This document shows, piece by piece, positions 3,523-61,754 of a stretch of DNA of 62,109 bases. The position numbers were made by a program, and so were the translations under genes. Source of the stretch: Heliocybe sulcata (lineage: Eukaryota > Basidiomycota > Agaricomycetes > Gloeophyllales > Gloeophyllaceae). How positions within the stretch are numbered: position 1 is the stretch's first letter; every line of letters starts with the position of its first letter. The notes beneath the pieces are model-generated. The model was not told the origin of the DNA, ran no database searches, and saw nothing but the letters and a program-made list of their open reading frames with translations. The stretch is from NCBI GenBank assembly GCA_004369045.1, contig ML213510.1:1236828-1298936 (forward strand), read 5' to 3'.

Positions 3523-5267
3523 TCACTGGGAACTGCGGGCGTCGCCACTTGGACCCTCGTCTGCACCTGCAGCGGGATCTGGTACGAGTTTGGGAGCAAT
3601 AGAATCATCAAGGCGGGCCTGCAGCTCGCTCGGACTGGTTGTCCCATCCGCGCTCAGAATCAAGGCCAGACTCTGCGTCATCTCCTCCGGGCGGAAAAGG
3701 CCCGCCAAACACCCGTCCGTATCCACGACCTTTGTCCACGTCAAATCCTGCAGCTGCCCCCTCTCGAGATTCCATGCAAATACCGACAGGCGGCGGCGCG
3801 CGAGGTCTCGGGCTATCACGAACGGCCGCCAGTTGCTGGCGCTGTCGCGCCGCCACTCAACGTAGCCGCCCGCGAGCTGGATGCGCAAGGCATGCGGGAA
3901 GGTCTCCTTGAAGTCGTCAAGCATCGAGCGTTGTTTTTGGAGGTCGAAGCTGTAGTTTTGGACCGTGAGGCGCGGGAAGCGAGAAGATGTGGCGGGGTAG
4001 AAGCGGACATTGCGTATGGGGTGTTGTTCCTTCTTAACGTCAAGACGTGTCTGGATATGAATACAGGGTGTGAGAGGGGTCCGAGAAAATCTAACGAGCA
4101 GCACACCTTCTCGATGGCGTATATGGTAAGGGTTTCCAGGTTGGGGAAATGATCCTTCGTGTCCATCCCCTGGTACGCACGGTCGGTCACTCCTAGTTCT
4201 ATAATAGGTGCGCTGGATTGTTTGATTGGGGATACGTTGACCGGTCTCCCATCCAGCCTCTTGAATGGATTCAGTTGAATGACTGTTACCCTTTGGACAG
4301 GACGGCCGGGAATCAACATTGGCAGAAACTCCCCTGGGCACTGCACTTCTTGGAGGTGCGGAAGTGCTGAAGGCTCCAAGCTGAAGGCAGGAGTGTCCAT
4401 GAATTGTGTAGGAGGTATGAAGGTGGAGATGCGCAGGGCCTTGATGGTCGGGGTACGGCAAAGGTATCGGGAAAACAGGTCGATACTAGAGCTGCGGACC
4501 ATGACGTCGAGGTCCTCGACAGGGCAGTCAACCCCGCCGAGTATGAAGGAGTTTGTCAAGTCCCAGTCACATAACTTCAGCACACGCAGAGTTGACGTCG
4601 AGATGAGCTTAACTATCACTGAGAAGTACGGCCCTGCAGTCTGGTCTATGGGACGCGAGATGGTGCCATAGTGCTCATACCGGCGTAGCCGAGCGATGGG
4701 ACCGGGAAGCACCAAGTCTTTGACGTCTTGGTAGAATTTACAGTCCTCCAGTGATAGTGTCTCGAGATTGGGCAGTTGCTGAATGGACTGAATCATCCAC
4801 CCGGCGATATCAACCGCGTTCAGACGCAAGCTCTGGAGATTGGGGAAGTGCGACAGGAGGTGCATGTGCTCATCAATAGTGGCCCTCAGCACGTCCGGTC
4901 CTTTCGACGGCCAGTCCAGCAAAGTGTAAGATTTGACATGCAAGCGGATCGAGGAGCCACCTTTTATGAGGTTTATCCACTCGAGGTGTTGATCGATTGA
5001 CCACGGCGGCTTTGTGGGGTCACCGCGCCCAGAGAAGGATAGTTCGCTGAAGAGGACGGGGCGGGCGATAGCACAGAAAGAACGACACACCAGGGTGAGC
5101 TTGGCCACGTCTAGCTTACACTCCCGCAGACATTGGTCCTCACCAGGTCGCAGTCGGTCGATGATCTCGCACCAAATGTCGTATGGGATTTGTGCAATTG
5201 ACTGCTCATTTCGCACGTCGCCTACTGCTTGCAGCGTATCAACGTCGCGTCTAATCATACTGAGCAT
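3523..5267 (-). CDS. F-box protein with LRR-like region
   Basis: The model has two exons, 5267-4107 and 4050-3523, joined over a 56-nt GT-AG intron (4051-4106, phase 0), giving 562 residues. The F-box is near residues 25-70 (PYDIWCEIIDRL ... LTLVCRSFCAIARPVLF). A long leucine-rich region with irregular LRR-like strands (FPNLQSLRLNAVDIAGW, LPNLETLSLEDC) follows. F-box proteins are substrate adaptors of SCF ubiquitin ligases, and Agaricomycetes carry large divergent families, so the substrate cannot be predicted. The first ATG in frame (5265-5267) was chosen because the frame is open upstream but offers no ATG. The tail is acidic and serine-rich. Confidence 0.78.
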
Positions 5268-5903
5268 CAAACTCACCTGCAGTCTGCGATTCAAAAGCCA
5301 TACAAGTGCAGGCAGTTCGCTGCAGACTGTATTTATCCTTTGGCGATGTCGTGGACTGGAGGAATTAAGACAGCACTGCCTTCGCGATCTGCCAGCGGCC
5401 GCCTCAACCGCAGGTGGCAACGTTTGAATCAGCCTCCTCCATCAACATATCAGACAGCATTTACGACAACTACGTGAGTGGAGGGCCTTTAATTGCGCGG
5501 TCGCAGCAGATTACAGTAAGTGATGAATATGATGCCATGCAACCGACGCTGACTCGCATGCTCAGCAGCCTTCGCTGAGACTACCTAACTAATACCGCAA
5601 ACAAACATCATATCATCGCTTGTTTCCTCAACAGCCCCTGGCATATAATGTCACCATCGGTAATGTATGCCATCAGCCGGGCTGTGCTTCGGAGTAGGCA
5701 CTAAATGCGTGAGTCTTGTTCTGCGCAGCGTGATGCACCTGGCTGCGCGACCATCAGGTTCCGGACGTAAATCTTGATTCAGGATCCTTATCCGCGTCTA
5801 CATGCATCTTGGCATACAACTGTATACATAGTTGCAGACGCCAGGTGCTGTATGCTGTATCTCAATCTTCTCCACGACACTTACGACCACCGTATTCTTC
5901 AGT
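5268..5903. other. Gene-free divergent intergenic region
   Basis: This lies between the divergent F-box gene and the first membrane-protein gene, so it should hold both promoters. No TATA box or clear operator stands out, and no coding frame is convincing. Confidence 0.45.
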
Positions 5904-7243
5904 ATGTCTAGCGATCCCGAGGGTGCTAGTGCTAGGCAATTCCAGGACGGCAACGAGCTGACCGTCATGCAGATGAGGTAGGTCGTCTCTTCGCTATATC
6001 TTATTATACACGATGTAACAATCTTCACAGAGTCAAGGATCCGCTAAATCGGATCAGACATCCCACCCCCTATATCTGCTTCTACCTAACCCTCTGGTCT
6101 CTGAGCATCGCTCTCGCCCTGGGCACTTTTCCGTCCGCGGTACGGTGGCAATCGCATCAGCCTTTCGACCTCGCTCTTGCCATAGTCTGCCTTGGTACTC
6201 TCCTTGAAATATATGCAAGAGCACTATGCACAGGATCGGTGAGCTCTAGACGTAGAGCCGATAGTTCCATGTTAATGGACTTCCATAGAGATTCTGGTCC
6301 TCATGGGCATGCATACCAGAGCTATTAGTATGCATGTGGACTATCATCACGTGGTCGCTGTCTGGCATGCTTCCCATCGGGGGCGGTCCTGCATTCCTTG
6401 GAATATGCATACTCCTTCCGCGCAGCATGTTCCAATGTCTGCGAGCAGCGTTCGTCGCTTTAAGGTCAGCCCTGGGTCTGCAAACTTGTGGTCCGAATCA
6501 TCTTGTTATCCGTCTTCCTTAACTTGCTACTTCAGGCTGACTCGGCATATCCGCAGTGTTCAGAATTTGAGACAGCAAGCGGACATCGATAGCGTCGATG
6601 TCGATGTTGATAACTTCCGTCTGCGTGGAGCATTGCGGCCAGTGTATCCTCCGAGCAGCCTGGAGGAGGTGCTTGCTTATTCGTTCAGTTGTGCCCTAGA
6701 AGGTATACTACGCGTCGTCCAGCTGGTCCTATCGTTCGCCATTTTTGGATACAGCGGGGTTAACGTCTTGGTGGTGATCCTTCTAATGTTCTTTATCGTT
6801 ATCGAGATCGTCGTCTGCTTCAAAGATATTGTGCGTATTTCATACCTTCTGTCAGTCATAGCTTAAGTGTTTGTTCTTGCATAGGCCAAGATTCCTGTGA
6901 TTATCACCGTGTTTGACGTCCTGGCGATGGTTGCAGTAGTGGTTGCCTTTGCTCTTGAGCCGTGGCAATTCGTGTATGGTTTGCCCGTCATTGACCCTGG
7001 TGTCGCCGGTTTCTGCGCCGGGTGGGCTCCTTTCATCAGAAACTTTGTCCGGCTTGTCTACTATCCATTTGCGATGAGACGGTGAGTCGTATGAATGGCA
7101 TGAACCGCGACGGAACCTGATTTACTATATGCTAATATAGGTCTTTCAGCGGACTCTCCGCTCCTGCGATTCGCTTACCAGATGATGACGAGCCAGTGCC
7201 AGAAAATGTAGACGTCGCGGGTGGATCTGAGAGTCCGGTATGA
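5904..7243 (+). CDS. Multi-span membrane protein with two voltage-sensor-like modules (paralog A)
   Basis: The model has six exons: 5904-5977, 6031-6238, 6289-6464, 6536-6830, 6885-7081 and 7141-7243, totalling 1053 nt and 350 residues. It has about eight hydrophobic helices in two groups of four, joined by a short acidic linker (DVDVDNF). Each module has an acidic residue in its second helix (E84 in LLEIYARA; E243 in VIEIVVCFK) and another in its third (E105; D262 in VFDVLAM), followed by a basic fourth helix (R139, R146, R153; R303, R307). That pattern resembles S1-S4 voltage-sensor domains, but no pore helix follows either module. Introns at phases 2,0,2,0,2 fall at equivalent places in both halves. 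The tail is acidic and cytosolic-looking. The next gene is its paralog. No named family is recognised; the voltage-sensor idea is inference. Confidence 0.72.
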
Positions 7244-7843
7244 CATGCCAGATATCTCAGGTACAACATTACTGCCAGCCCATAAAATGTATGCGACATT
7301 GCACACGCGCTGCCAGATGCGGTATGCTACCTCATGTCGAGACTGATCTTGCAGTGCACATCAGCGCGCCTCCTTTGGAGCAGGTCTTTGTCAAAGTCGC
7401 ATTCGAGCAAATGGGGAACGCGGTAGGCTGTGCTTGATCGGGCGTCTAAACGGGATGCTGTGCGACTCCATCGATGATAGTCGGGTTGGATCCTCTGGTT
7501 TAGCCTCTGGACATGTTTCACGTTGCCGAGTACTGAGCGTTCGTGTATCAGTAAGTATGCGCCAACATGGTGCACCCTCAGTGTTGTCTTGTGAGTCTCC
7601 GCAATTTGCTAATCCGGTGGGATACTCATCACTGCATAGCCCTGACCGAGTCAGCGCTTATCGTTTACGGAACTGATCTTGATGGTCGTAAGGTGGTATT
7701 AATCAGTGTAAGGCAATGTATTCTGGCTATAGATCGCAATCAGATATACTGCGCAAATTTTGCTGCCTATATATAAAGCGTGCATCTGCCGTGGTCTCCC
7801 CACCTTCGACCGCCTCTTGCCGTACCAACAGCATCTGGGGAAC
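7244..7843. other. Spacer between the tandem paralogs
   Basis: Six hundred bases separate the two paralogous membrane genes. Short frames are present, but no third copy or relic of the family could be aligned here. The promoter of paralog B should lie in its 3' half. Confidence 0.45.
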
Positions 7844-9215
7844 ATGCCGACATTCGAGCAAAGTAATAATGGGATTGTCGTCCATCTCACGTATGTCTTT
7901 CCTCGTGCATGCTACAGACTTCCTGAGTAAATCCGATCATCCAGACTTCCGAACCTCACAGATGTGCTCAATCGGCTGCAGCACTCCGGAGCATACTTTG
8001 CATACTACCTCGCCCTATGGGCCTGGTCTATCCCGCTCGTGGTCGTGGCTCTGTTAGACTCGTCTTGGCGAGGCTTCCCCGTTGCATTTTACCTCATCCA
8101 ATTCCTTGTGAACTCAAGTACTCTCGTTGAAGTATACCTCAGGGCGTCGCACAAGGGTCCGGTAAGTGAGTATGTTCAGGTCCCTCACCTGTTATCCGAC
8201 TCGGTTTTCTCTAGAGTTTCTTGGTGTCGGGAGCAAGCCTGCTCGACGTGATCTTTTGTACAGTGACTCTCATCACGTGGTCCCTTTCTCTCGTTGCCGA
8301 GGAGAGAGGCCTTGTCGCGACTTCGGCGGCTATTGGAGCCATATCACTTCTAGTGCGCGGTATCTTCCAGTTTCTTCGGCTAGGTCTCGTCATATTAAGG
8401 TGCGTTGATGAACGTCCACATCTCAAGGCTTTGATGTTGCTCATACGATCTCAAACGAAGGCTGGCCGTGAAGAAGCAGCAAGATGGTGGTGAGAGTCCA
8501 TCCGACTCTGACAATGCCGATATCGACAACTTCGACATCCGCGACCTGTTTGGTAGTGCCACCGACCGTACCATCCGGGGTTTGGAAGAAGTCCTGATAA
8601 CCTCCTTCAAACGCGGCGTATTAGGGACTATCCGCATCGTCCAGCTCGTCGTGGCCATCGTGGCCGTGGTCTTGGCTTTCGACGACGTATCCGTGCTTGT
8701 TATTATTCAGGAGTTCGCCCTCATATTCGAGGCTGTCACGGTGCTGGTCTTCAGGAGTCACGTGAGTCACTTGTATGCGGTCGCACCGGGACACTCACTA
8801 ACTGGAAATCCAATCCTACCCTATTCAGCTCAACCTTTATCTTCCTCTCGTTGTACTAGACGAGCTGGTCTGCCTTCTAGGCTCGGTCACCGCTATTATC
8901 ATTGCTCGGGATGGAAATCATCGTCACTACTGGTCCGGGCCAGCTCTAGTCACACGGATCTTCACGATCGTCACAGCCTTTGTATTCCTGGCAAGAAGCG
9001 TGATTCAGCTGCTATACTTTGTATACAGTATATTCTTGTGAGTCGCAGTCCTGATGGCTGTGGTACGCGCTATTGACTTCAAATATTCTGTCAGGTCTTG
9101 CAAGATCGTCTTCCAGTCTTCGGAGACCATCCGCCTTCTTGATGAAGATGACAATTCCAAAGCCGCCGGAGATGAGAGTGCTGGGAGCGCAAGGCAAAAT
9201 TCGGAAAGTGTCTGA
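7844..9215 (+). CDS. Multi-span membrane protein with two voltage-sensor-like modules (paralog B)
   Basis: The model has six exons: 7844-7890, 7945-8161, 8215-8399, 8461-8761, 8829-9037 and 9095-9215, giving 1080 nt and 359 residues. All intron phases (2,0,2,0,2) match paralog A. The first module aligns well with A (FYLTLWSLSIALAL versus YYLALWAWSIPLVV; TIITWSLS versus TLITWSLS). The acidic pair in helices two and three is E78/D99 in module 1 and E240/D261 in module 2, 21 residues apart in both. The fourth helix of module 1 has R136, R143 and R150. The inter-module linker is DADIDNFDIRD and the tail is polar. No pore region or other domain is present. It arose by tandem duplication with A; function unknown. 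Confidence 0.72.
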
Positions 9216-9567: not shown

Positions 9568-10573
9568 ATGTTTCTAATCTCTCTCCTCCTCTCCTGCTTC
9601 CTAGCCACCACTAATGCCGCACGCCTACCCACTGGCACACCTCGCTCCGTCTCCTCCTGCGAACCCTTCTACACCGCATTTCCTGGCTTCTACCTCCCAC
9701 ATGAACTTGTTGCTATCAGCCACTCAGACTCGTACACAGTGGATAAAGCGGGCTTGCATATGTTCTTGGAACGGCCGGAGGGAAATATTAAGACGGGAGA
9801 CGGTGTGAATGATAAAGTTGCGGATGGCGCGACGTTGAATTCTACGTTTACGTTTCTGTGAGTGTCTTGACGGGCCTTTTATTGGGGCTCGATGATCTGA
9901 CCAGGGCGTGCTATGCGAAGATATGGCAAGGTCACGTATGAGATGCTTGCTCCCACTGTCCCCGGCGTGGTGACTGCTGCTATCCTCATCGGTGAGTAGC
10001 GTAACCAGCGGCTTTATAAGCTGGTTCTCATCTGTGCATGCATATGCAGCCGACGAAGGAGACGAGATGGACATCGAGCTTCTAGGCAGCGACCCCTCCC
10101 ATTTCCAGTCCAACATCTTCGCACCAAAGCCGAAAGATCGCGGGCCTTTGTACGGCGTGTTCAGTAGTGTCGATGATATACCAACGGGGACTACCAAGGT
10201 TAGTGGGGCACGGAAGCTTGACGTAATGGCCTGACTGAGCAGAGTAAATTCACAGACTGTCCATTCGTACAGCATCGACTGGAACGCGGATCGTATAATA
10301 TGGAGCGTCGACGATAAAGCCGTTCGCACCCTCCGGAAAGGTGAGGATGCACATGCTTCGGTCAGCCTGTCTCATATATATGCGTCTCCAGATGAGACGA
10401 TGTACCACGGCGTCCAGCACTTTCCCTCGCACGCTACCAGGATACAGTTGGGCATTTGGGATGCCTCTAACCCAGCTGGTACTGCTGCTTGGGCTCATGG
10501 GCCGATCGACTGGAAGAATGTCCCGAGGACGATGGAGGCGACTGTGAAAAGTATCAAGCTGGAGTGTCATTAA
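9568..10573 (+). CDS. Secreted GH16-family glycosidase/transglycosylase
   Basis: The model has five exons: 9568-9857, 9921-9991, 10050-10198, 10256-10340 and 10392-10573, giving 777 nt and 258 residues. A signal peptide (MFLISLLLSCFLATTNA) is followed by a jelly-roll type sequence. It has the GH16 catalytic signature DEMDIELLG (Glu nucleophile, Asp helper, Glu acid/base) just after PGVVTAAILIADEG, and downstream IDWNADRIIWSVD and FPSHATRIQLGIWDAS. These are hallmarks of fungal GH16 enzymes acting on beta-1,3/1,4-glucans or chitin-glucan cross-links in the wall. The second intron boundary was placed at 9920 because the nearer AG at 9904 puts a stop in frame. No GPI signal is seen. The exact substrate is not predictable. 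Confidence 0.85.
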
Positions 10574-16910: not shown

Positions 16911-19900
16911 TTACTCTCCTCCAGAACCACTGGGTGTCGCCGAACCGCTGCCAGTGGGCGCGCCACCCGAGAACATGGCCTTCAAGGCCATCTCGTCCCT
17001 CTTCTTCCGCACCCGCTCTGCCTCCTCCGCTCCTCCCGTCATCTTCAACTTGCCCCCCTTCACAAAGCCCTTCAGCTCCGACTCGAACTCGTCGCTCTTG
17101 TGCGCCATTTCCCTCTCCCTGCTCTTCTGACTCGCCTCGATGGCCTTCAGTCTCCGCTCAGGATCGACAGACGCGTTCTTGATCTCGAGCATGACCGTGC
17201 TCAAACCGTTCACTCCTTCCTCTGCTGGGGGAGGAGTGAACGTAGCACCGCCATTGACAGGCCGCAGCCGACCGCGCGAGTTCGGTCGGTTTGTGCCACG
17301 CAGCGAGATGACCTTCTCGATATGCCCATACACCTCGATGACAGCCTTCTGGTCTTCTAGTAGGTCGCTCAGGAACTCCTCTTGGTGGTTCAAGAAGCCT
17401 TGCTCCTCCACAATATTCTGCAGCTCCTCCTCCCAGGTCTTCTTCCACATCGGCTTAATCGTCTTGATATGCTCCTTCAGACTCTCCAGCTCCGCATTGA
17501 CGTTATCCATATCGTCCTTAATGGACCGGAGAACGTGCGGCTTGGGCGTGACATGCCGCTTAATCACATCGTCCTTCACGTTCTCCACCAAATCCTGCAG
17601 CTCCTCCATCCTCGTCAGCGCGTTCTGGGACCGCATATCCAGCTTCGTCTTCCCATCGTCGATGTACTGCCGCGCCCCGCCGACCTTGGCCGCCGCCAGC
17701 TGCCGCACGTTCGCAGTCTGCGTGCGCAGCGTGCCGAGCGACTCCTTTGTCTGCTTCATAAACTCCGTATACAGCTGGCGCATAATGCCCAGATCTCTTC
17801 TCAAATTCTGGACCTCGTCAAACTGAGTCTTCAGATCCGAGACGACCCGGCTCGAGTACTCCGACACAACAGAACTGCCCGTAATCTGAGGTGGAAGTGA
17901 CTGTCCCGTCAGATTTGGCTGCACAGACTCCGGCGCCAGTGTCTGATCCTCATGCCCGACCAGACGCGAAAGCCGTCTTGCAACATGCTGGAACTGCTTA
18001 TCTGAAGGACGCGCGGCAGGCGGACTCCCCTCCCCGAGAGGCTGTCCTATAATCATAGGCGGGTGCGACATCCGGCGATTACTGCTCACAAGCGAGCGTA
18101 TATCCTTGATATCTTGCGACAATGTCGAGATCTGCACATCGATATGCTGCTTGATCTGATCGAGCGCTACCGAGCAGAAGCGATAGAGTTAGCGCGACAC
18201 GACATGCACACGAGGTAGATGAATTTACGTACGTTCGATGTTCAAAGACAGTAAACATTTCTCCTTCACCTCCTCCACGTCCTCGAGCTCATACTGAACC
18301 CCGCTGCTTGGATCGCGTATATATATCGCAGGGAAGTTCTCCATCCCAGGATTGTACGAGAATTTATCCAAGAACAGCACGCGCAGAGACGAAAAGGACA
18401 ACCCCGCAGGCTCGATATTCACCTTCTTCACCTCCCTCCCCAACTGTAGGAACACAGGGAACGACTTTGCCCTGGACGGCCCCTCCTGCTTATCGGCCTC
18501 CGCCGCCTCTTCCCTCTCTTCAGCAGTCTCAGTCGGGCGTGGCTCCGGCGTCGGATCTGAGGGTAAAGGCGGCACAGGTGGCGCCTCCTCCACCTCCTCA
18601 ATCGGGCTCCTCGATGGGCCCCTATACATCCTCGATCTCCTCCTATAGCTTCCCTGCCTCGACGGCGGCAACGCAGGCCCTCCATCATCCTCGCCATCCT
18701 CCGTCAGCACCGCCAGCTCGCCCTGCGTCAGTACCGAGCCGACTGCCATCGACCGGCGGTTCCCCGCACCGCCGAGACCGAGCTTGGAGCCCGTCATCTT
18801 GCTAATGTTGTAGGATGAGTAGCGTTTGGATGCGCGCCGCTCGAGAGCGTCGGATTTCTGTAGCGCGGCGAGCGAGCTCGCGACGGCGGGCGTTGGCTCG
18901 AGTGGAGGAGAGTCGAGGGGAGGGGAGCCAGCAGCCTGGCGTTGGCTCATCTGCACGTCTTCGGTAGGTGGAGGAGTAGCGACTTCGTCAACAACCACGG
19001 ATGGCGGCGGGGGTCCCATCGGCTTGTCCACAAGCGAGTATCGCTTCATGTGAGCCGGTGCTTGTGCTGTAGGTACAGGGGACGACGGCGTCTCCGGTCG
19101 TTCGTCGACCACAGGTAGTGGAGGAGTAGGGACTTCAGGAGGAGGTTCGGGAGGTTCGGGCGTGCTATTCGGTAGCGGGGGTAAGGATGAAGCCGGGAGA
19201 CTATTCGTCGCAAACTGGGCGCGTCGGTGCGGGCTCGGCTGAACGGGTACAGATGCGCGATCAGGCGGAGGAGGTAAGTCACCGTCTCCCGAAGGTGCCC
19301 GGGCAGGAGAGACGAAGCCCCCGACGAAGGTCTCCTCGTCATCAGCAGTCGCGGGGGGTTGTGAGAGCGTAGAGGTCGCTTGCTTTCTCCGCGCGGACGT
19401 TGCGCTCCGTCGTGCGGCCTCCTCCCGTCGCTCATGCTCGCTGTTGGGTAGGCTCCGGGAGTGGTGCACACGAGCACTCTGTCCTTCCCTATGCGACGAC
19501 CTCTCAGAGCGTGACGAGCGACTCTCGGATCGCTCGTGGCCGTGCTCTGATGATTCAGATTTCTGTTTGTGTTCCTGCATTATCCGCCGGTATAATGACT
19601 GTTTCCCTCGAAGACCTTGCAATAAATTCGTGATGACAGCGCGGACTTGGGGAAGATATGTGTCGAGGTTCTCGGGAGTTGCCTCTTCTGCTAGGCATGT
19701 CTCTAGGATGCTGCGTAGATCCTCCGGGACGGACATAAGCTCGCTAGTATGGAACAATCAGCAAAACTGTCTCATACACGAAATGTCGCATACGCACGTC
19801 ATCTCGATGTGAAAAGCAGTGAACGCAGCAACAGCCGCATTGAAATCGTTGCCCAATCTAACATAAACATCGCTGACTTGCGTCTCGGTCATCTGTTGAC

Positions 19901-54456: not shown

Positions 54457-57400
54457 ATGCCTGTTTGCCCCGGCTGTCATAAAGAATTCAGTCACTCCGG
54501 ATATTCCAATCACATCGCACAGACAACCAGACCAGCATGTGCTGGAGCGCACCTATACACTCAAGATTTCCCTGGTACTGATCCAGCTCAGGATGCCGAT
54601 GACCTGCATGTGGTCCCCGAGCCATTTCAAGGCGACTTCTTTGGTTCATACGAGGATGACGACTTCGAATGGCCTCAGGATGACGGTATGGGAGATGAGG
54701 ATTTTTCCGGCAGGGATTTGCTGTCCGATTATGACTCCAGCATCAACTCCGAGCTGGAGGAAGGCGGTTGGGAGCCGCCGCCGGAACCGCACCTGAGTAG
54801 CGATGCTACTATGGGACCTGGACTCAGCATTGGAGATGAAGCTGTAGAGGATGTACCTGACAGCTCACCTGTGGATGCACGGGAGTCATCGCTCTGGTAT
54901 AAGCAGCTCACTGTGAATGCCTTCCCGGGCGGATGGGCAGGTGCTCCAGTTGACTCTTCAGACCCGCAATCTCCATCAGTATACGAGAAGTACAAGAATT
55001 GCATCGATGCATCCGGAGCTAACCCCTGGGCACCATTCAAGTCACGGCTAGACTGGGAGTTTGCAAGATGGGCCAAAACACGAGGCCCTGGATCGACTGC
55101 TGTGACGGAACTTCTGAGCATCGAAGGGGTGGGTACATTGAGTACTGAAACGTACACATTGTCAAAGAGCTGAGATTCTGAATTGGGATTCGCCTGCGCG
55201 TATAGGTCCACGACGCGCTCGATCTATCATATAAGAACGCGCGTGAGTTGAGCAGGATAATCGATGAGGAGCTCACATCGGGTCGACCAGCTTTCAAGCG
55301 TGAAGAGATTGTCATCTCGGGGGAAGCCTTCGACGTGTATTTCCGTGATATAATGCAATGTACTGCTGCATTGTTCGGGGATCCCGAGTTTGCCTCTCAT
55401 CTCGTATTTGCACCAGAACGCCACTACGCAGATGCTGACAAGACAACCAGAGTTTACCACGATATGTATACTGGGAAATGGTGGTGGTCAACACAGGTCA
55501 GTCGCAGCATCGTACAATCGTCGTGGAAGTTTTGCTCACTTTTATATTCCGATAGAAAATACTGGAACACCAGAAGCCGGGCGCCACGATAATTCCTATC
55601 ATTATATCATCAGACAAAACACAGCTCACATTATTCCGTAACAAAACAGCATACCCTGTCTACATGACTATCGGAAATCTACCAAAGGAGATTCGACGTA
55701 AACCATCACGGCGAGGCCAGATTCTGCTTGGCTACTTACCCACAACAAAGCTCAGTCATATTAGCAACAAAGCTGCTCGCCGCCGTGCACTGGCGAACTT
55801 ATTCCATGCTTGTATGCGTCACATTCTCGGGCCAATCAAGGTACCAGGTGTCGAGGGGACTCGCATGGTGAGCGGAGATGGTGTCGTCCGCAGGGGACAT
55901 CCTATATTCGCAACGTACATAGGCGATTATCCAGAACAGGTCCTAGTAACTGGGTGCAAGACAGGGCTTTGTCCAAAAGGCACGATTCCTCGTGAAGCGT
56001 TGGGGAGCGGGACACGGGACTGCGCGCTCCGCGACCTCGGCCATGTGCTTGATGCACTGGCTGCGATTGATGAAGGTCCTGTTGCATTCACACGGGCGTG
56101 TGAAGACGCTGGCATAAAGCCGATATTTCACCCGTTCTGGGAGGACCTTCCCTATGTCAATATATTCCGATCCATAACTCCCGACATTCTACATCAGCTC
56201 TACCAAGGAGTCGTCAAGCACCTGCTATTGTGGCTGAAAGAGGTGTATGGCCCAGTCGAGCTTGATGCTCGCTGCCGACGCCTACCGCCCAATCACAACA
56301 TTAGGATCTTTTCGAATGGCATCACCACACTATCAAAGGTTACCGGGAAAGAGCATGGCGATATATGCCGCTTTCTCATGGCTCTGACGATTGGGCTCCC
56401 TCCGCGCAATCTTGAGTTCGGCCGTTCAATGCCCCGTTTGATCCGGACAGTTCGCGCTCTCTTGGATTTTCTATATCTTGCACAGTACCCCTTACAGACT
56501 TTGAAGACTCTGGAGGCACTGGAGAACGCTCGTACTCGCTTCCACGAGAATAAGTCTATTTTTGTGGAGCTGGGCGTGCGCAGCCACTTCAATCTGCCGA
56601 AGCTGCACTCGCTTGACCACTACGGGGACTCTGTGCAGCTCTTTGGCACGACCGACAATTACAACACGGAACATTCTGAACGGCTCCACATCGATTTCGC
56701 AAAGGACACCTACCGTGCAACTAACAAGAAGGATGAATTCCCCCAAATGACCGTCTGGCTTGAGCGGAAGGAGAAGATCGAGCGTCACTCAGCATATATA
56801 CAATGGCGCCTTACACAAGCTGCATACCCAAGAGGGCTATCTGCGCCGGCTCCTCCTGATCCTATTCTTCACATCAAGATGGCGCGTCATCCCTCGGCGA
56901 AGGCCGTGCCGTTTTCAAGTCTAGTCGCAGACTACGGCGCGGCTTCTTTCCGCGACGCCTTGGCACGCTTCGTGGTGAAGTGGAGAAATCCGTCCCTAAC
57001 GGCGGCTCAGGTTGAACGTTCACTAGGCAGCATCTACTTCAGGTTTCGGACGGTACCAGTATTTCACAAGATCAAATTCTATAACGAGCATGCCATGGGC
57101 TACGACGGCTCCACACAGGCACTAGATGTTGTGCGTGTAAGACCATCTCGTAAGGACAAGAGGCAGCACACTGTACCTGGCAGATTCGATACGGTCTTGG
57201 TGAACGATGGGACAGGAGCAGCATTTGGCGTGCAAGGTGAGCACCGAGCAGTATACTATGACATGGATGTTTATGCTCTTCACTCGCAGGCTACCGTGTT
57301 GGTCAGATCAGAGTCGTGTTTCGTTTGCCCAAGAGGGCAACGGATGACCTCTTCCCGGGCCTTATAGACCTGCCGGAGCACCTGGCGTACATTGAGTGGT

Positions 57401-57811: not shown

Positions 57812-58304
57812 TCAGTACTCGTGGATATCGATAAATAGTACGGAGTTACAAAAAGTCGTACAAAAAGCTTGCGAAGCCCTGGTATCCTGCTATGCTCCAT
57901 TGTGGAGTTAGTCAAACATAACGATATCATGCGCAATAATCTAAGGCAGAGCTTCGAAACTCAGAAACTCCTCAGTGTCGAGTTTCTGGAGCTGGTATGT
58001 GTTTGTAAGGGAGCGCCCGATGTGGCGTGTATTTGGTACTGTTTGGCAGGCACGCGGTTGTAGCGGAGGTTGAAGGAGATGAGCGCTAGACTCTTACTAC
58101 TACCTCAGAACTGCTTTACTGTATCGTCGTGTATCATCAACAAGGATAAGGTCCTGTTCTGTGCTTGTGATCTAAGTGTACAAGATATACGGGCGGTACG
58201 TTGGTAGTTCTACACTTTTTTGAACACTTACCGCATTCAAAAAATTTTCTTTGGACGCAACCTTGTTGCGATAACGACGCACCAAGTAATCGCGAAAGGC
58301 CGCG
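57812..58304 (+). other. Presumed LTR and leader of the retrotransposon
   Basis: Non-coding DNA before gag. The size is compatible with a short LTR plus leader. A second LTR would be needed to define it. Confidence 0.35.
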
Positions 58305-60500
58305 ATGAGCACTACGACAACCGTGCGTGATGGACGCACAGAAACTGCAAGCGGAGCAGTCCCTGTACCCGGAGAACCACAAGATCATTCCCCGGGTATG
58401 CAAAAGTCGAACCAAGGGTCGACCTCGTCGAGCGATCAAGACGGGGCCATTCCACAGCAGGACGACACCCCAATGTCAGCGCGACGCCTAGCACTAACCC
58501 AGCAGTTCGAGCAGAGGATGATGGGAGGCGGACGCCGCACACCGACTACGGACTCAGAGCATGACGCCAGGGCAGTCGTCGAACAACTTATTGGCAAAAC
58601 GAATGCCCGGTATGGCGATGTGCGCACGGCGCGGCCGAACGCGAAGTCTGCTGACAGACAGCGACGAGAGACGAGCGGGCCGAATAGTCACGAGGAGGAG
58701 CGCGCCAGATCCGTATTCGCTAACTATGCTGCATCGGGGAGGGTCCCTATTGGGTCACGGACCCCTAGTCGTGCGGATTACGACCGCCCTAGGACACCAA
58801 TGGGACCAAGGCCTATCACACCATCTCGGGCGGAGAGGAGGCCATTACCAGTACCGAATGTGGGAGGACTCCACGGGAGTTTGAGATCTCACTCGCAAGG
58901 CGAGTATATGCTGGACCGGCAACCGATCGTCTCAAACCCCCTCTACGCTCATGCGAGGGTAGACCGATACGTTCCTTTGGATGAAGCCGCCAGGCAGCAG
59001 GTCCCTGAGGCCCAGTCATACGGGATTAAGTCGGAAAATCAATCAGATAATGACTATCAGGTTGATGGGTCAAGGCAGCCCGCGCAACTGCGGTGTATGA
59101 CTACCGAAGTTCCGAGCCTGCATGGAAGGCTACGCAGCGCGGAGTGGACTCCATTGTCAAGTGGAATGCCTATGAATGAGATTCACGGTGTCAGTTACGG
59201 CCAAGAGCCTGGGTTGTCCAGCAACATTTTGCGAGAGACCGCGCTGCATTTAAGTTGGTATAAGGAACAAGAGGACCCGGTCAAAAGGGAGAGTTTACCT
59301 CGGGTACCTCCGCATCAGTCGCTGGAACCGGTACCATATATGTTTGGCACTAGTCCGGGGCATATACATGCGCAGGTTCGTGAGCCTGACGAGTTGAGTT
59401 ACATGTCACCTACGGCGCGGCCAGAGAACAGAGCTATTGCGCAACAGCCTGAGCCACGGCACACCGAGCCCAGGCCAACAGGAGCTGACTACGCTCGTCA
59501 GATCCAGCAACTTCAGCTGGCCATCGACCGATTGATGAGAGAAGCTGCCCAACAGACTGGTGGTGACAGACCACCAAACAACGGTTGGGATTACCCTGGC
59601 GGGATGGGAAGGCACCCCAGCGTACCCGCTCTGCGAGGCGGAGGGGGCGGAGGCCCACCGGGAGGAGGAGACGATGGAGGTTCTCCGTATAGGGGCCCTC
59701 CGGATGATGACCAACAACGTCGAGGGCCACCAGACCAACCACCACGACGTACACCCGCAGGGAATGGCGGTAATGGCGGCGGTGGAGGTGGTGGTGGAGG
59801 TGGAGGCGACGACCCTCCCCCATCTGATGATTCATGGCATAACGAACCCGACCAACGAGGCCGTAGAGGATATTCTCGTCATCGTACCCCGGCGAATAAC
59901 TACGAAAATGCGATGATCCATAGGCTGGTGGAGCTTATTCGAGATAAACGTCGGCGCGCACTGTCTCCAATTCCTCAGCTGAAACATCTAAAACCTCCTC
60001 AAGCTATCGAGCAGTATGAGGGCAAGGCCGATCCAATACGATTTGAGGCATGGCTAACCTCCGTATTACTACATCTGGATCTCGCGGGACTGGGTCAGGT
60101 GAAGTTTGACGAGTACCAAGTCCGGGCACTTGGTGCATATGTTAAGGGCGAGGCTTTATCATGGTATAATCGGGCGACGCAATCACCATCTCGGATACAG
60201 GACACATGGACCTTCGAGGAGGTGATCATCAGATTGTTCAAGCGGTTCATGTATACGGCTACGCCAAAAGACGCCGACGACCAGTACGAGTCACTGACAT
60301 ACTCTATCGAGCAAGGCAAGGGCATCAGGAAATTAGTGGAGACTATGAATTACTGGGCGGATCGGCGTGTAAGCCGACCCTCTGATTATGATTTTGTCAA
60401 GTCTATATTCACTCGGCTGCCCAAATGGATACAAGATGAGTCGAGCTATGGTGCGGGTATCACGCCTGAGCATGGATCAACAGAGGAATTGGTTGCCTGA
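58305..60500 (+). CDS. Retrotransposon Gag, N-terminal and capsid part
   Basis: This frame has 731 codons from ATG 58,305. The first ~450 residues are polar and Pro/Arg-rich, then comes a run of about a dozen glycines. The capsid-like retrotransposon-gag domain follows at ~540-720: EQYEGKADPIRFEAWL, ALGAYVKGEALSWYNRATQS and FEEVIIRLFKRFMY. It ends at TGA 60,498-60,500, but the same frame continues open afterwards. The stop is therefore either a nonsense mutation or a readthrough site inside gag. Confidence 0.8.
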   Translation: MSTTTTVRDGRTETASGAVPVPGEPQDHSPGMQKSNQGSTSSSDQDGAIPQQDDTPMSARRLALTQQFEQRMMGGGRRTPTTDSEHDARAVVEQLIGKTNARYGDVRTARPNAKSADRQRRETSGPNSHEEERARSVFANYAASGRVPIGSRTPSRADYDRPRTPMGPRPITPSRAERRPLPVPNVGGLHGSLRSHSQGEYMLDRQPIVSNPLYAHARVDRYVPLDEAARQQVPEAQSYGIKSENQSDNDYQVDGSRQPAQLRCMTTEVPSLHGRLRSAEWTPLSSGMPMNEIHGVSYGQEPGLSSNILRETALHLSWYKEQEDPVKRESLPRVPPHQSLEPVPYMFGTSPGHIHAQVREPDELSYMSPTARPENRAIAQQPEPRHTEPRPTGADYARQIQQLQLAIDRLMREAAQQTGGDRPPNNGWDYPGGMGRHPSVPALRGGGGGGPPGGGDDGGSPYRGPPDDDQQRRGPPDQPPRRTPAGNGGNGGGGGGGGGGGDDPPPSDDSWHNEPDQRGRRGYSRHRTPANNYENAMIHRLVELIRDKRRRALSPIPQLKHLKPPQAIEQYEGKADPIRFEAWLTSVLLHLDLAGLGQVKFDEYQVRALGAYVKGEALSWYNRATQSPSRIQDTWTFEEVIIRLFKRFMYTATPKDADDQYESLTYSIEQGKGIRKLVETMNYWADRRVSRPSDYDFVKSIFTRLPKWIQDESSYGAGITPEHGSTEELVA

Positions 60501-61754
60501 GTCGAGGAGATTGAACGAGCGTATCACTATAGTCATGGACAACCCACACGTAAGACGGGCGAGGCCCGCCAGAGTGGGAATAGTCAGCCAGCCAAGGCTC
60601 CGCAACAACCTCACCGTGGTCCACCAGGGAATACCGAACGAAACATCACGCGGGAGTGGACCCCAAGGTCAACTGGGAATAGGCAGAATCGACCCAGTAT
60701 CACACCTGCGGCCGTGATTCAACGGGGAACGTATAACCGACAACCGGTTTCGAGTAATCGCCCTGTTGAGGCAGACAAGCCCCGGCAGCCGGAGGCTAGT
60801 AAGGATAGGGGGTCAAACCCGCATCCGAGGACTGGCACCTCGGGAGGGAGCCGGTGCTACGTATGCAATCGCTTCGGGCACTTTGCGAATGCATGCCCTA
60901 GTAGACCAAGCCTCTGGGCTATGGGGGATGAGTCTCGTGCGGAGGGGATCGAAGTGACTACAACCACGGAAGAAGTAGCATTAACAAATGACGTGGTCGG
61001 TAATGAGGAAGGTGCAACGCCGGAAACTCCGGAATCTGACTATGAGGGGTCCCAGTACGACCCTGAACCAGGCCTTGAGAGCGAGGAACGCTTTGGCATG
61101 ATGAGGGACGAGGGGGATGCCACCAACCACGCTGCGATCAAGGTGATATCGGAAGGCGAGGATGAATATGACCAGGAGCGATGTTATGCGATGCGTGAAG
61201 TCGAGGATACCGACATGCCCAACTGGATCCCGACAACGAAAGAGTCGGGTGACGAGAATAATCTGGATTGGATGGAAGTTGGGCCTGCATTCAACTCACA
61301 CCCATGGGGTTCACTGCAGTATTCGGAAGGAACTGAGATTGATCGGTCCACATTTACGGCGGCCACAGATGGGCCAACGGTTTCTGAGACTCCGATATGC
61401 ACTGTGGAGGATCCGCAGGTCCGAATAGCTGCGTTGGAGCATCACGTTCGAGTACTGAATCACGAGATACAAATGAAGGACATGATGATACAGTCTCTCA
61501 TGGATGATAACGAAATGCTGCGGGAGGCGAACTTGGTATTATCAACACAGACTGAACTGGTCGACTCGCTGAGAGCCGATATTGTCCGGCTACAAGATCG
61601 GCTTGATCGTGAAGAATATGGCAACATTCCTCAGCTATACGCTGCCAACGACGACAAAGGCACAAGATTGAGCAAGGCTCAAGAAGGGGAGGGTGAACCC
61701 CCGATTCGCGGGCGTTTAGTATTGCAAGAACGACCAGGATTTAGACCTCTCTGA
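60501..61754 (+). CDS. Retrotransposon Gag, nucleocapsid part and acidic tail
   Basis: This continues the gag frame after the TGA (VEEIERAYHYSHGQ...), with an ATG available at 60,714. It holds one CCHC zinc knuckle, CYVCNRFGHFANAC, which binds the element's RNA. An unusually long acidic region and a coiled coil (ALEHHVRVLNHEIQMKDMM) follow. It ends at TGA 61,752-61,754, and the protease frame begins directly after in the same frame. Confidence 0.75.
   Translation, partial: VEEIERAYHYSHGQPTRKTGEARQSGNSQPAKAPQQPHRGPPGNTERNITREWTPRSTGNRQNRPSITPAAVIQRGTYNRQPVSSNRPVEADKPRQPEASKDRGSNPHPRTGTSGGSRCYVCNRFGHFANACPSRPSLWAMGDESRAEGIEVTTTTEEVALTNDVVGNEEGATPETPESDYEGSQYDPEPGLESEERFGMMRDEGDATNHAAIKVISEGEDEYDQERCYAMREVEDTDMPNWIPTTKESGDENNLDWMEVGPAFNSHPWGSLQYSEGTEIDRSTFTAATDGPTVSETPICTVEDPQVRIAALEHHVRVLNHEIQMKDMMIQSLMDDNEMLREANLVLSTQTELVDSLRADIVRLQDRLDREEYGNIPQLYAANDDKGTRLSKAQEGEGEPPIRGRLVLQERPGFRPL

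What the first reader, a model, noticed from the sequence alone, without database searches (positions are those of the whole stretch)
5904..9215. Tandem genes for pore-less proteins made of two voltage-sensor-like modules
Both proteins contain two four-helix membrane modules. In each module an acidic residue in helix 2 is paired with one in helix 3: E84/E105 and E243/D262 in paralog A, E78/D99 and E240/D261 in paralog B. Three of the four pairs are exactly 21 residues apart. In the human proton channel Hv1 the equivalent S2/S3 pair (E153 and D174) is also 21 apart. A basic fourth helix follows, but its arginines are spaced by 7 in module 1 rather than by 3, and no pore helix follows either module. 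A double, pore-less voltage-sensor protein would be an unfamiliar architecture: perhaps a proton-conducting or voltage-reading protein, perhaps only a look-alike.
Basis: partly seen in the sequence, partly recalled or inferred. Interest (0 to 1): 0.75.

Follow-up and report, generated by a model that had tools for sequence, protein, structure and literature searches.

The report
Fungal pore-less double voltage-sensor-like proteins
Two neighbouring fungal genes encode membrane proteins that appear to be built from two copies of the four-helix part that lets ion channels feel voltage, with no ion pore attached; what they do is untested.

Summary
Genes A (5904-7243, 350 aa) and B (7844-9215, 359 aa) are intact six-exon paralogs (28% identity) with two four-helix groups and no pore segment; the acidic pairs are as stated. 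The same genome holds relatives C1 (one module) and C13 (two). Both pass Pfam's Ion_trans cut-off, and C1's PDB matches are voltage-sensor (VSD) proteins apart from two designed repeats. Module 1 of A and B belongs to that family (leave-one-out E 1.4e-25 and 6.7e-31), although A and B alone match neither Pfam nor VSD structures. Module 2 scores at chance against the family profile, but shared introns (phase 0 between S2 and S3, phase 2 ending S4) place its acids and S4 arginine in register. It is not Hv1: no RxWR, no S2 aromatic, no Asp inside S1; a separate Hv1 gene exists. Best reading: a fungal pore-less VSD-like family, nearest here to Cav-type sensors, more likely regulatory or adaptor proteins (module 1 perhaps weakly voltage-sensitive) than proton channels. 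No structure prediction ran, and no fungal ortholog survey was possible. Function is inference.

The parts
5904..7243 (+). Gene A, six exons, 350 aa, two four-helix modules
   Evidence: Spliced model, GT-AG introns, phases 2,0,2,0,2
6031..6238 (+). A exon 2: S1 and S2 of module 1 (E84, R88)
6289..6464 (+). A exon 3: S3 and S4 of module 1 (E105; R139, Q143, R146)
6536..6830 (+). A exon 4: acidic linker, S1 and S2 of module 2 (E243)
6885..7081 (+). A exon 5: S3 and S4 of module 2 (D262; R303, R307, Y310)
7141..7243 (+). A exon 6: acidic tail after S4, no pore helix
7844..9215 (+). Gene B, six exons, 359 aa, two four-helix modules, tandem paralog of A
   Evidence: Spliced model; A-B 98 of 354 columns identical, E 1e-26
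7945..8161 (+). B exon 2: S1 and S2 of module 1 (E78, R82)
8215..8399 (+). B exon 3: S3 and S4 of module 1 (D99; R136, Q140, R143)
8461..8761 (+). B exon 4: acidic linker, S1 and S2 of module 2 (E240)
8829..9037 (+). B exon 5: S3 and S4 of module 2 (D261; R306, Q310, Y313)
9095..9215 (+). B exon 6: acidic tail, no pore helix

Best explanation
A and B are members of a fungal family of pore-less voltage-sensor-domain (VSD)-like membrane proteins of the voltage-gated channel superfamily, nearest in this genome to Cav-type (CCH1-like) sensors. The family has single-module (C1) and double-module (C13, A, B) forms. Shown: gene structure, family homology of module 1, absence of pore segments. Supported: module 2 is a diverged copy of the same domain. 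Inferred: module 1, which keeps the S2 Glu, an Arg four residues later, the S3 acid and two or three S4 arginines, forms a salt-bridged four-helix bundle whose S4 may shift a little with voltage. Module 2 has lost the S2 base and the second S4 arginine (now Tyr) and serves as a structural partner. The proteins act as non-conducting regulatory or adaptor subunits, passing the state of module 1 to partners through the acidic linker and tail, rather than as ion or proton channels. Rough odds: VSD homology of module 1 0.95; of module 2 0.8; non-conducting regulatory role 0.5; real voltage sensitivity 0.35.
For: C1: Ion_trans 4.4e-8, 33.1 bits, cut-off 25; C13: 9.6e-8, 31.9 bits, two stretches. C1 against the PDB: 27 sequences at E<=10, best a Nav channel at 1.8e-4 (summed over several weak stretches), then CatSper1, Ci-VSP, 3wkv ('Ion channel'), KCNQ2 and bacterial ion transport proteins, with two designed repeat proteins among them. 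The five-module profile matches 75 sequences at E<=10; the 60 shown are named as Nav, Cav, CatSper, VSP or 'Ion transport protein'. Leave-one-out HMM trained on the other four modules: A1 1.4e-25, B1 6.7e-31, 0 of 500 shuffles as good for each of two kinds of shuffle. Intron anchors: acid +11 in 7 of 7, acid -10 in 6 of 7. S4 Arg stands 13 residues before the last whole codon ahead of the phase-2 intron in 6 of 6 modules that have that intron, Gln/Arg four later in 6 of 6; A2 and B2 rank 1 of 167 and 1 of 176 registers, 3 and 2 of 5000 shuffles as good. Family profile against 769 ORFs from the window and eight overlapping channel loci: after the four exons of A and B that trained it, the next six rows are copies of two CCH1-type VSD ORFs (E 0.0044-0.014). 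S2-S3 loops net positive in 6 of 7 modules, C-terminal tails net negative in 4 of 4 proteins.
Against: A and B have no significant Pfam hit and no VSD hit in the PDB, alone or as a two-row profile of module 1; the link runs through C1 and C13. An exon-wise PF00520 search of the genome rang for none of the four members (it also missed the Hv1). Module 2 scores at chance against the family profile (A2 399, B2 125 of 500 plain shuffles as good; 405 and 103 of 500 pattern-keeping ones); hhalign of module-2 to five-module profiles gives probability 2.7%; its profile finds nothing in the PDB; genome searches with B2 or A2 alone find only themselves, not even each other. Register scores of A2 and B2 (-9.6 to 16.3) are well below the controls (27.7 to 55.5), and A2 at the S2/S3 intron is not significant (rank 6 of 155; 488 of 5000 shuffles as good). 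No structure was predicted. No ortholog outside this genome was seen. The regulatory role is inferred from missing features, not from positive evidence.
Confidence: 0.55

Rival explanations
1. Proton or cation conductors: the modules themselves pass H+ or a cation leak, as in Hv1 or a gating-pore (omega) current. Sparse S4 charges and a non-aromatic plug would leave a leaky gating pore, and two modules in one chain would replace the Hv1 dimer.
For: Pore-less VSDs can conduct protons (Hv1; PMC7910559, part 1 of 8 read). The aromatic plug is absent in 7 of 7 modules and S4 charges are sparse (sequences). Two VSDs per unit mimics the Hv1 dimer. C1 also matches 3wkv weakly (E 0.03), which I recall as an Hv1 chimera.
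Against: No RxWRxx[R/K], no F three before the S2 Glu and no Asp inside the placed S1 in any of seven modules, while the genome's own Hv1 (L049) shows LADLVY, FLLE and RLWRLVKLVGG. Acids do stand at the S1 borders: D54 in B module 1, D224/D225 in B module 2, E208 in A module 2.
Confidence: 0.15
2. True two-sensor voltage receptors: both S4 helices move with voltage and signal to cytosolic partners, without any channel or enzyme in the chain.
For: S2 Glu, S2 Arg/Lys and S3 acid together in five of seven modules, S4 Arg in all seven. Acidic linkers (DVDVDNF in A, DNADIDNFD in B) and acidic tails.
Against: Only two or three S4 charges spaced by 7 with Gln between, instead of every third residue. 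Module 2 of A and B lacks the S2 base and the second S4 Arg. No partner is known.
Confidence: 0.2
3. Look-alikes: unrelated eight-helix membrane proteins whose acids and arginines match by convergence.
For: A and B give no significant Pfam match and no VSD match in the PDB on their own; module 2 is at chance by profile.
Against: B and C1 match at 4.4e-13 and 1.8e-13; leave-one-out E 1.4e-25 for A1 and 6.7e-31 for B1; C1 and C13 pass Ion_trans; shared intron frame and register.
Confidence: 0.04
4. Only module 1 is a VSD; module 2 is an unrelated four-helix segment acquired by fusion.
For: Profile searches do not link module 2 to VSDs.
Against: Same intron phases at the same helix boundaries; D at +11 in both A2 and B2; S4 Arg and Gln/Arg in gapless register, rank 1 of all registers tried; C13 shows that a clear two-VSD member exists.
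Confidence: 0.15

Closest known systems
Ion_trans (PF00520) voltage-sensor domains of Cav/Nav-type channels; in this genome the CCH1-type channel at C9:318182-322378 (name inferred from several Ion_trans stretches)
   Same: S2 Glu, S2 Arg/Lys, S3 WNxxD in C1 and C13, S4 Arg; nearest non-self ORFs of the family profile
   Different: No S5-P-S6 pore in A, B, C1 or C13; S4 arginines of A and B module 1 spaced by 7 with Gln between, not by 3; A and B have lost the WN before the S3 acid
Hv1 voltage-gated proton channels (fungal SlHv1/AoHv1, PMC7910559)
   Different: No RxWRxx[R/K], no S2 Phe, no Asp inside S1; two modules per chain; a separate Hv1 gene exists (L049)
TMEM266 (C15orf27), voltage-sensor protein that does not appear to form a channel (passages in PMC13095418, and PMC10377628)
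   Same: Pore-less VSD-like protein, apparently not a channel
   Different: Vertebrate, one VSD per chain with a dimerising coiled coil; no sequence comparison made here
Two-pore channels (TPC; features recalled, TPC papers seen only in search listings)
   Same: Two VSDs in one chain
   Different: TPCs have a pore after each VSD; A, B and C13 have none

Membership tests
VSD of the voltage-gated channel superfamily (Ion_trans) | Score above Pfam PF00520 cut-off (25 bits) | tested here: inconclusive
   A, B: no Ion_trans hit. Family members C1 and C13: 33.1 and 31.9 bits. A1 and B1 belong to the same family. Control: the genome's Hv1 ORF itself scores only 21.0, the Kv ORF 27.4
VSD of the voltage-gated channel superfamily (Ion_trans) | S2 Glu and S3 acid in register | tested here: met
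   Acid +11 in 7 of 7, -10 in 6 of 7 modules; the five-module profile aligns these with S2 Glu and S3 Asp of Nav and Cav in the alignments printed
VSD of the voltage-gated channel superfamily (Ion_trans) | S4 with basic residues at every third position | tested here: not met
   A and B module 1: R0, Q+4, R+7, R+14; module 2: R0, Q/R+4, Tyr+7
VSD of the voltage-gated channel superfamily (Ion_trans) | Aromatic plug in S2 three before the Glu | tested here: not met
   0 of 7 modules: T, T, M, I, V, I, L (sequences)
VSD of the voltage-gated channel superfamily (Ion_trans) | S1-S4 fold | not tested
   Structure prediction accepted no job in 23 calls
Hv1 proton channel | S4 motif RxWRxx[R/K] | tested here: not met
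   Absent in 7 of 7 modules; motif from PMC7910559; present in L049
Hv1 proton channel | Aspartate inside S1 (selectivity filter) | tested here: not met
   No Asp in the hand-placed S1 helices of 7 of 7 modules; D54 (B module 1) and D224/D225 (B module 2) lie just beyond S1
Hv1 proton channel | Voltage-gated proton current | not testable with these tools
   Needs electrophysiology
Two-pore channel / Cav / Nav | S5-P-S6 pore after each VSD | tested here: not met
   Linkers of 54 aa and tails of 35 and 39 aa without hydrophobic helices in A and B

The most novel reading that the evidence does not exclude
A dedicated fungal electrical receptor: a tandem voltage sensor with no channel, enzyme or transporter in the chain, in which one module moves with voltage, the other is a fixed or inhibitory partner, and the acidic linker and tails carry the signal. 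Single- and double-module forms coexist in one genome beside a separate Hv1, a Kv-type and a CCH1-type channel.
Probability: 0.2. Interest if true: 0.82.

Novelty: new variant of a known kind. Interest (0 to 1): 0.58.

Why it matters
The pore-less voltage sensors I know of carry one VSD per chain (Hv1, TMEM266, VSP; partly recalled). A tandem pore-less form, in a genome that also keeps a normal Hv1, would be a new arrangement of this domain and a natural test of what a VSD does when it neither gates a pore nor conducts protons. Electrical activity of mycelia is reported (PMC11227530, search listing only), and small non-channel candidate receptors could make that question testable by gene removal. 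If they prove not to sense voltage, they are a clear case of the VSD fold reused as a scaffold.

Tried and rejected
Rejected: Hv1 membership (motifs absent, separate Hv1 found). Rejected: chance look-alike for module 1. The weak hit at C1:364564 (E 0.0155) was read by eye; I recognised no family-like gene there, treated it as chance and left it out of the family. C1 against viral contigs and genome contigs (viral and prokaryotic collections): 22 and 28 stretches matched a pattern, none confirmed as a relative. hhalign of module-2 against the five-module profile was weak. Literature: nine paper runs. In the rows listed (64 showed 12 of 79, 67 12 of 17, 68 25 of 36, 123 10 of 15; the others were complete) I saw no tandem pore-less VSD protein and no fungal VSD-only family other than Hv1; the library lacks most subscription papers. 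Passages of PMC10218840 (its 'two VSDs' are those of Cav1.1) and PMC3410928 added nothing on such a family. Small trees group A1 with B1 (95/94 with five rows, 89/95 with seven) and A2 with B2 (99/98), but branches are long and the origin of the duplications (C13 versus A/B) is not resolved.
Full report
What is there. Gene A runs from 5904 to 7243 (350 aa) and gene B from 7844 to 9215 (359 aa). All ten introns are GT-AG and 50-71 bases long, and the phases are 2,0,2,0,2 in both genes. The proteins are 28% identical (98 of 354 columns, E 1e-26). Helices were placed by hand on the hydropathy peaks and motifs: two groups of four per protein, a 54-residue linker and a tail of 35 or 39 residues with net negative charge. 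Hydropathy alone does not separate all eight helices, above all in module 2 of A. Nothing after either module looks like S5, a pore loop or S6.

The acidic pairs. In every module a phase-0 intron lies between S2 and S3. Counted from that intron, an acid sits at +11 in 7 of 7 modules of the family and at -10 in 6 of 7; in A module 2 it is at -8. This explains the 21-residue spacing and the one exception. None of 20,000 permutations gave a column of 7 of 7. The modules are related, so this shows conservation rather than seven independent events.

Relatives in the same genome. The window's assembly (31.6 Mb, 51 contigs) holds two further members, found by exon-wise search. C1 (L014, matches at C1:954228-955207) is a 260-aa protein with one module. 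C13 (L015, matches at C13:573458-574933) is a 420-aa protein with two modules. C1 matches B at 4.4e-13 and 1.8e-13 and A at 1.2e-5 and 6.0e-6, depending on direction. C1 matches each of the two modules of C13 at 2.6e-14 to 7.7e-14. Further queries with B exon 3, module 2 of B, module 2 of A, and the C13 exon that joins its two modules gave no new member; the two module-2 queries found only themselves. The search is exon-wise and scores only the best candidates, so four members is a lower bound. C1 and C13 share the intron layout: phase 0 between S2 and S3 in each module, and phase 2 at the end of S4 in C1 and in C13 module 2. C13 module 1 lacks the latter.

Why this is a voltage-sensor family. 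C1 and C13 pass the Pfam Ion_trans cut-off (33.1 and 31.9 bits, cut-off 25). As a yardstick, the genome's own Hv1 ORF scores 21.0 and its Kv ORF 27.4. C1 matches 27 PDB sequences at E<=10: sodium channels (best 1.8e-4, summed over several weak stretches), CatSper, Ci-VSP, 3wkv, KCNQ2, bacterial ion transport proteins, and two designed repeat proteins. A profile of five modules (B1, A1, C1, C13-1, C13-2) matches 75 PDB sequences at E<=10. The 60 shown are named as sodium or calcium channels, CatSper, VSP or 'Ion transport protein', and in the two alignments printed the S2 Glu and S3 acid fall on those of Nav and Cav. Leave-one-out profiles, trained on the other four, recognise A1 (1.4e-25), B1 (6.7e-31), C1 (5.3e-29), C13-1 (2.6e-23) and C13-2 (2e-24); none of 500 shuffles of either of two kinds scored as high. 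Against 769 ORFs from the window and eight partly overlapping channel loci, the first rows after the four exons of A and B that trained it are six copies of two CCH1-type sensor ORFs (E 0.0044 to 0.014). The Hv1 ORF is not among the rows at E<=1.

What speaks against it. A and B on their own give no significant Pfam match and no voltage-sensor match in the PDB (two-row profile of module 1). Their tie to VSDs is through C1 and C13. An exon-wise Ion_trans search of the genome rang only for the CCH1-type and Kv-type genes, not for any of the four members nor for the Hv1. Module 2 of A and B scores at chance against the family profile (A2 399 and B2 125 of 500 plain shuffles as good; 405 and 103 of 500 pattern-keeping ones). 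The profile-profile comparison is weak (probability 2.7%, though its alignment pairs S3 with S3 and S4 with S4), and a module-2 profile finds nothing in the PDB.

Module 2 by gene structure. Aligned at the phase-2 intron, without gaps, the S4 Arg falls at the same place in 6 of 6 modules that have this intron, and Gln or Arg stands four residues later in 6 of 6. Seven residues later stands Arg in four, but Tyr in A2 and B2. This register ranks 1 of 167 for A2 and 1 of 176 for B2, with 3 and 2 of 5000 shuffles as good. At the S2/S3 intron B2 ranks 1 of 164 (15 of 5000), while A2 ranks 6 of 155 (488 of 5000, not significant), as its two-residue difference would lead one to expect. The scores themselves (5.3 and 16.3 for S4; -9.6 and 0.6 for S2/S3) are well below those of the five clear modules (27.7-39.3 and 33.8-55.5; all). 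I take module 2 as a strongly diverged copy (about 0.8). A2 and B2 are each other's relatives, so this is one lineage, not two witnesses.

Not a proton channel of the Hv1 family. Fungal Hv1 channels carry R.WR..K (PMC7910559, part 1 of 8 read; PMC10377628, passages). None of the seven modules has it, none has an Asp inside the placed S1, and none has an aromatic residue three before the S2 Glu. It reads LADLVY in S1, FLLE in S2 and RLWRLVKLVGG in S4, and its best PDB match is Hv1 (1.8e-9). R.WR..K..G is the motif that PMC7910559 gives for the basidiomycete SlHv1.

How it may work. Module 1 of A and B keeps S2 Glu, a base four residues later (R or K in 5 of 7 modules of the family, absent in A2 and B2), the S3 acid and S4 arginines spaced by 7 with Gln between. 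This is enough for a salt-bridged bundle but poor for a strong voltage sensor, and the plug residue is not aromatic. Module 2 has lost more. The linkers hold acidic stretches (DVDVDNF in A, DNADIDNFD in B). The reading I favour is a non-conducting regulatory or adaptor subunit, possibly weakly voltage-sensitive through module 1. This part is inference. A leaky gating pore and a true two-sensor receptor remain open.

Novelty. In the rows listed by nine literature searches (four of the lists were cut) I saw no tandem pore-less voltage-sensor protein and no fungal VSD-only family except Hv1. The library holds open-licence papers only, so this is weak evidence of absence. Genome databases may well carry such proteins as hypothetical or ion-transport-domain proteins; none could be consulted. 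I rate it a new variant of a known kind.

Surroundings. Neighbours are ordinary: an ORF with a sub-threshold leucine-rich-repeat match on the other strand (3819-5441), a GH16-like gene downstream (exon at 9974-10234), then Dna2 and Bud6/Aip3 (20 long ORFs scanned). They give no functional hint.

Noticed in passing
L015 (G000:C13:573458-574933): C13, a 420-aa protein with two clearer voltage-sensor modules (EVGIK...WNVLD and EVGLR...WNCLD), passes Ion_trans and has an N-terminal stretch that resembles an ExxxLL sorting signal (EHNALL; motif recalled). A better first target than A or B for structure or electrophysiology.
   Followed up: partly
L014 (G000:C1:954228-955207): C1, a single-module member with S4 IGRNVLQFLRLAMIMR and a long acidic tail (85 residues, net -9); possibly the ancestral form of the family.
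   Followed up: partly
L049 (G000:C3:934660-935013): A recognisable fungal Hv1 proton channel (RLWRLVKLVGG) in the same genome.
   Followed up: yes
G000:C9:318182-322378: CCH1-type calcium channel; one voltage-sensor ORF (L026, minus strand, with RLFIVSIAFKLVQRTNSL) has a sparse S4.
   Followed up: no
L034 (G000:C7:1346914-1347378): A Kv-type potassium channel gene with S4 FSILRTFRLVRVFRPFRY and a GYGE filter in a later exon.
   Followed up: no
window 55556-57364: Plavaka transposase ORF (Pfam 3.4e-87), followed by ORFs at 58290-60497 (no family) and 60501-61751 (zinc-knuckle match below cut-off).
   Followed up: no
window 16914-19757: Bud6/Aip3 gene on the minus strand, in two long ORFs.
   Followed up: no
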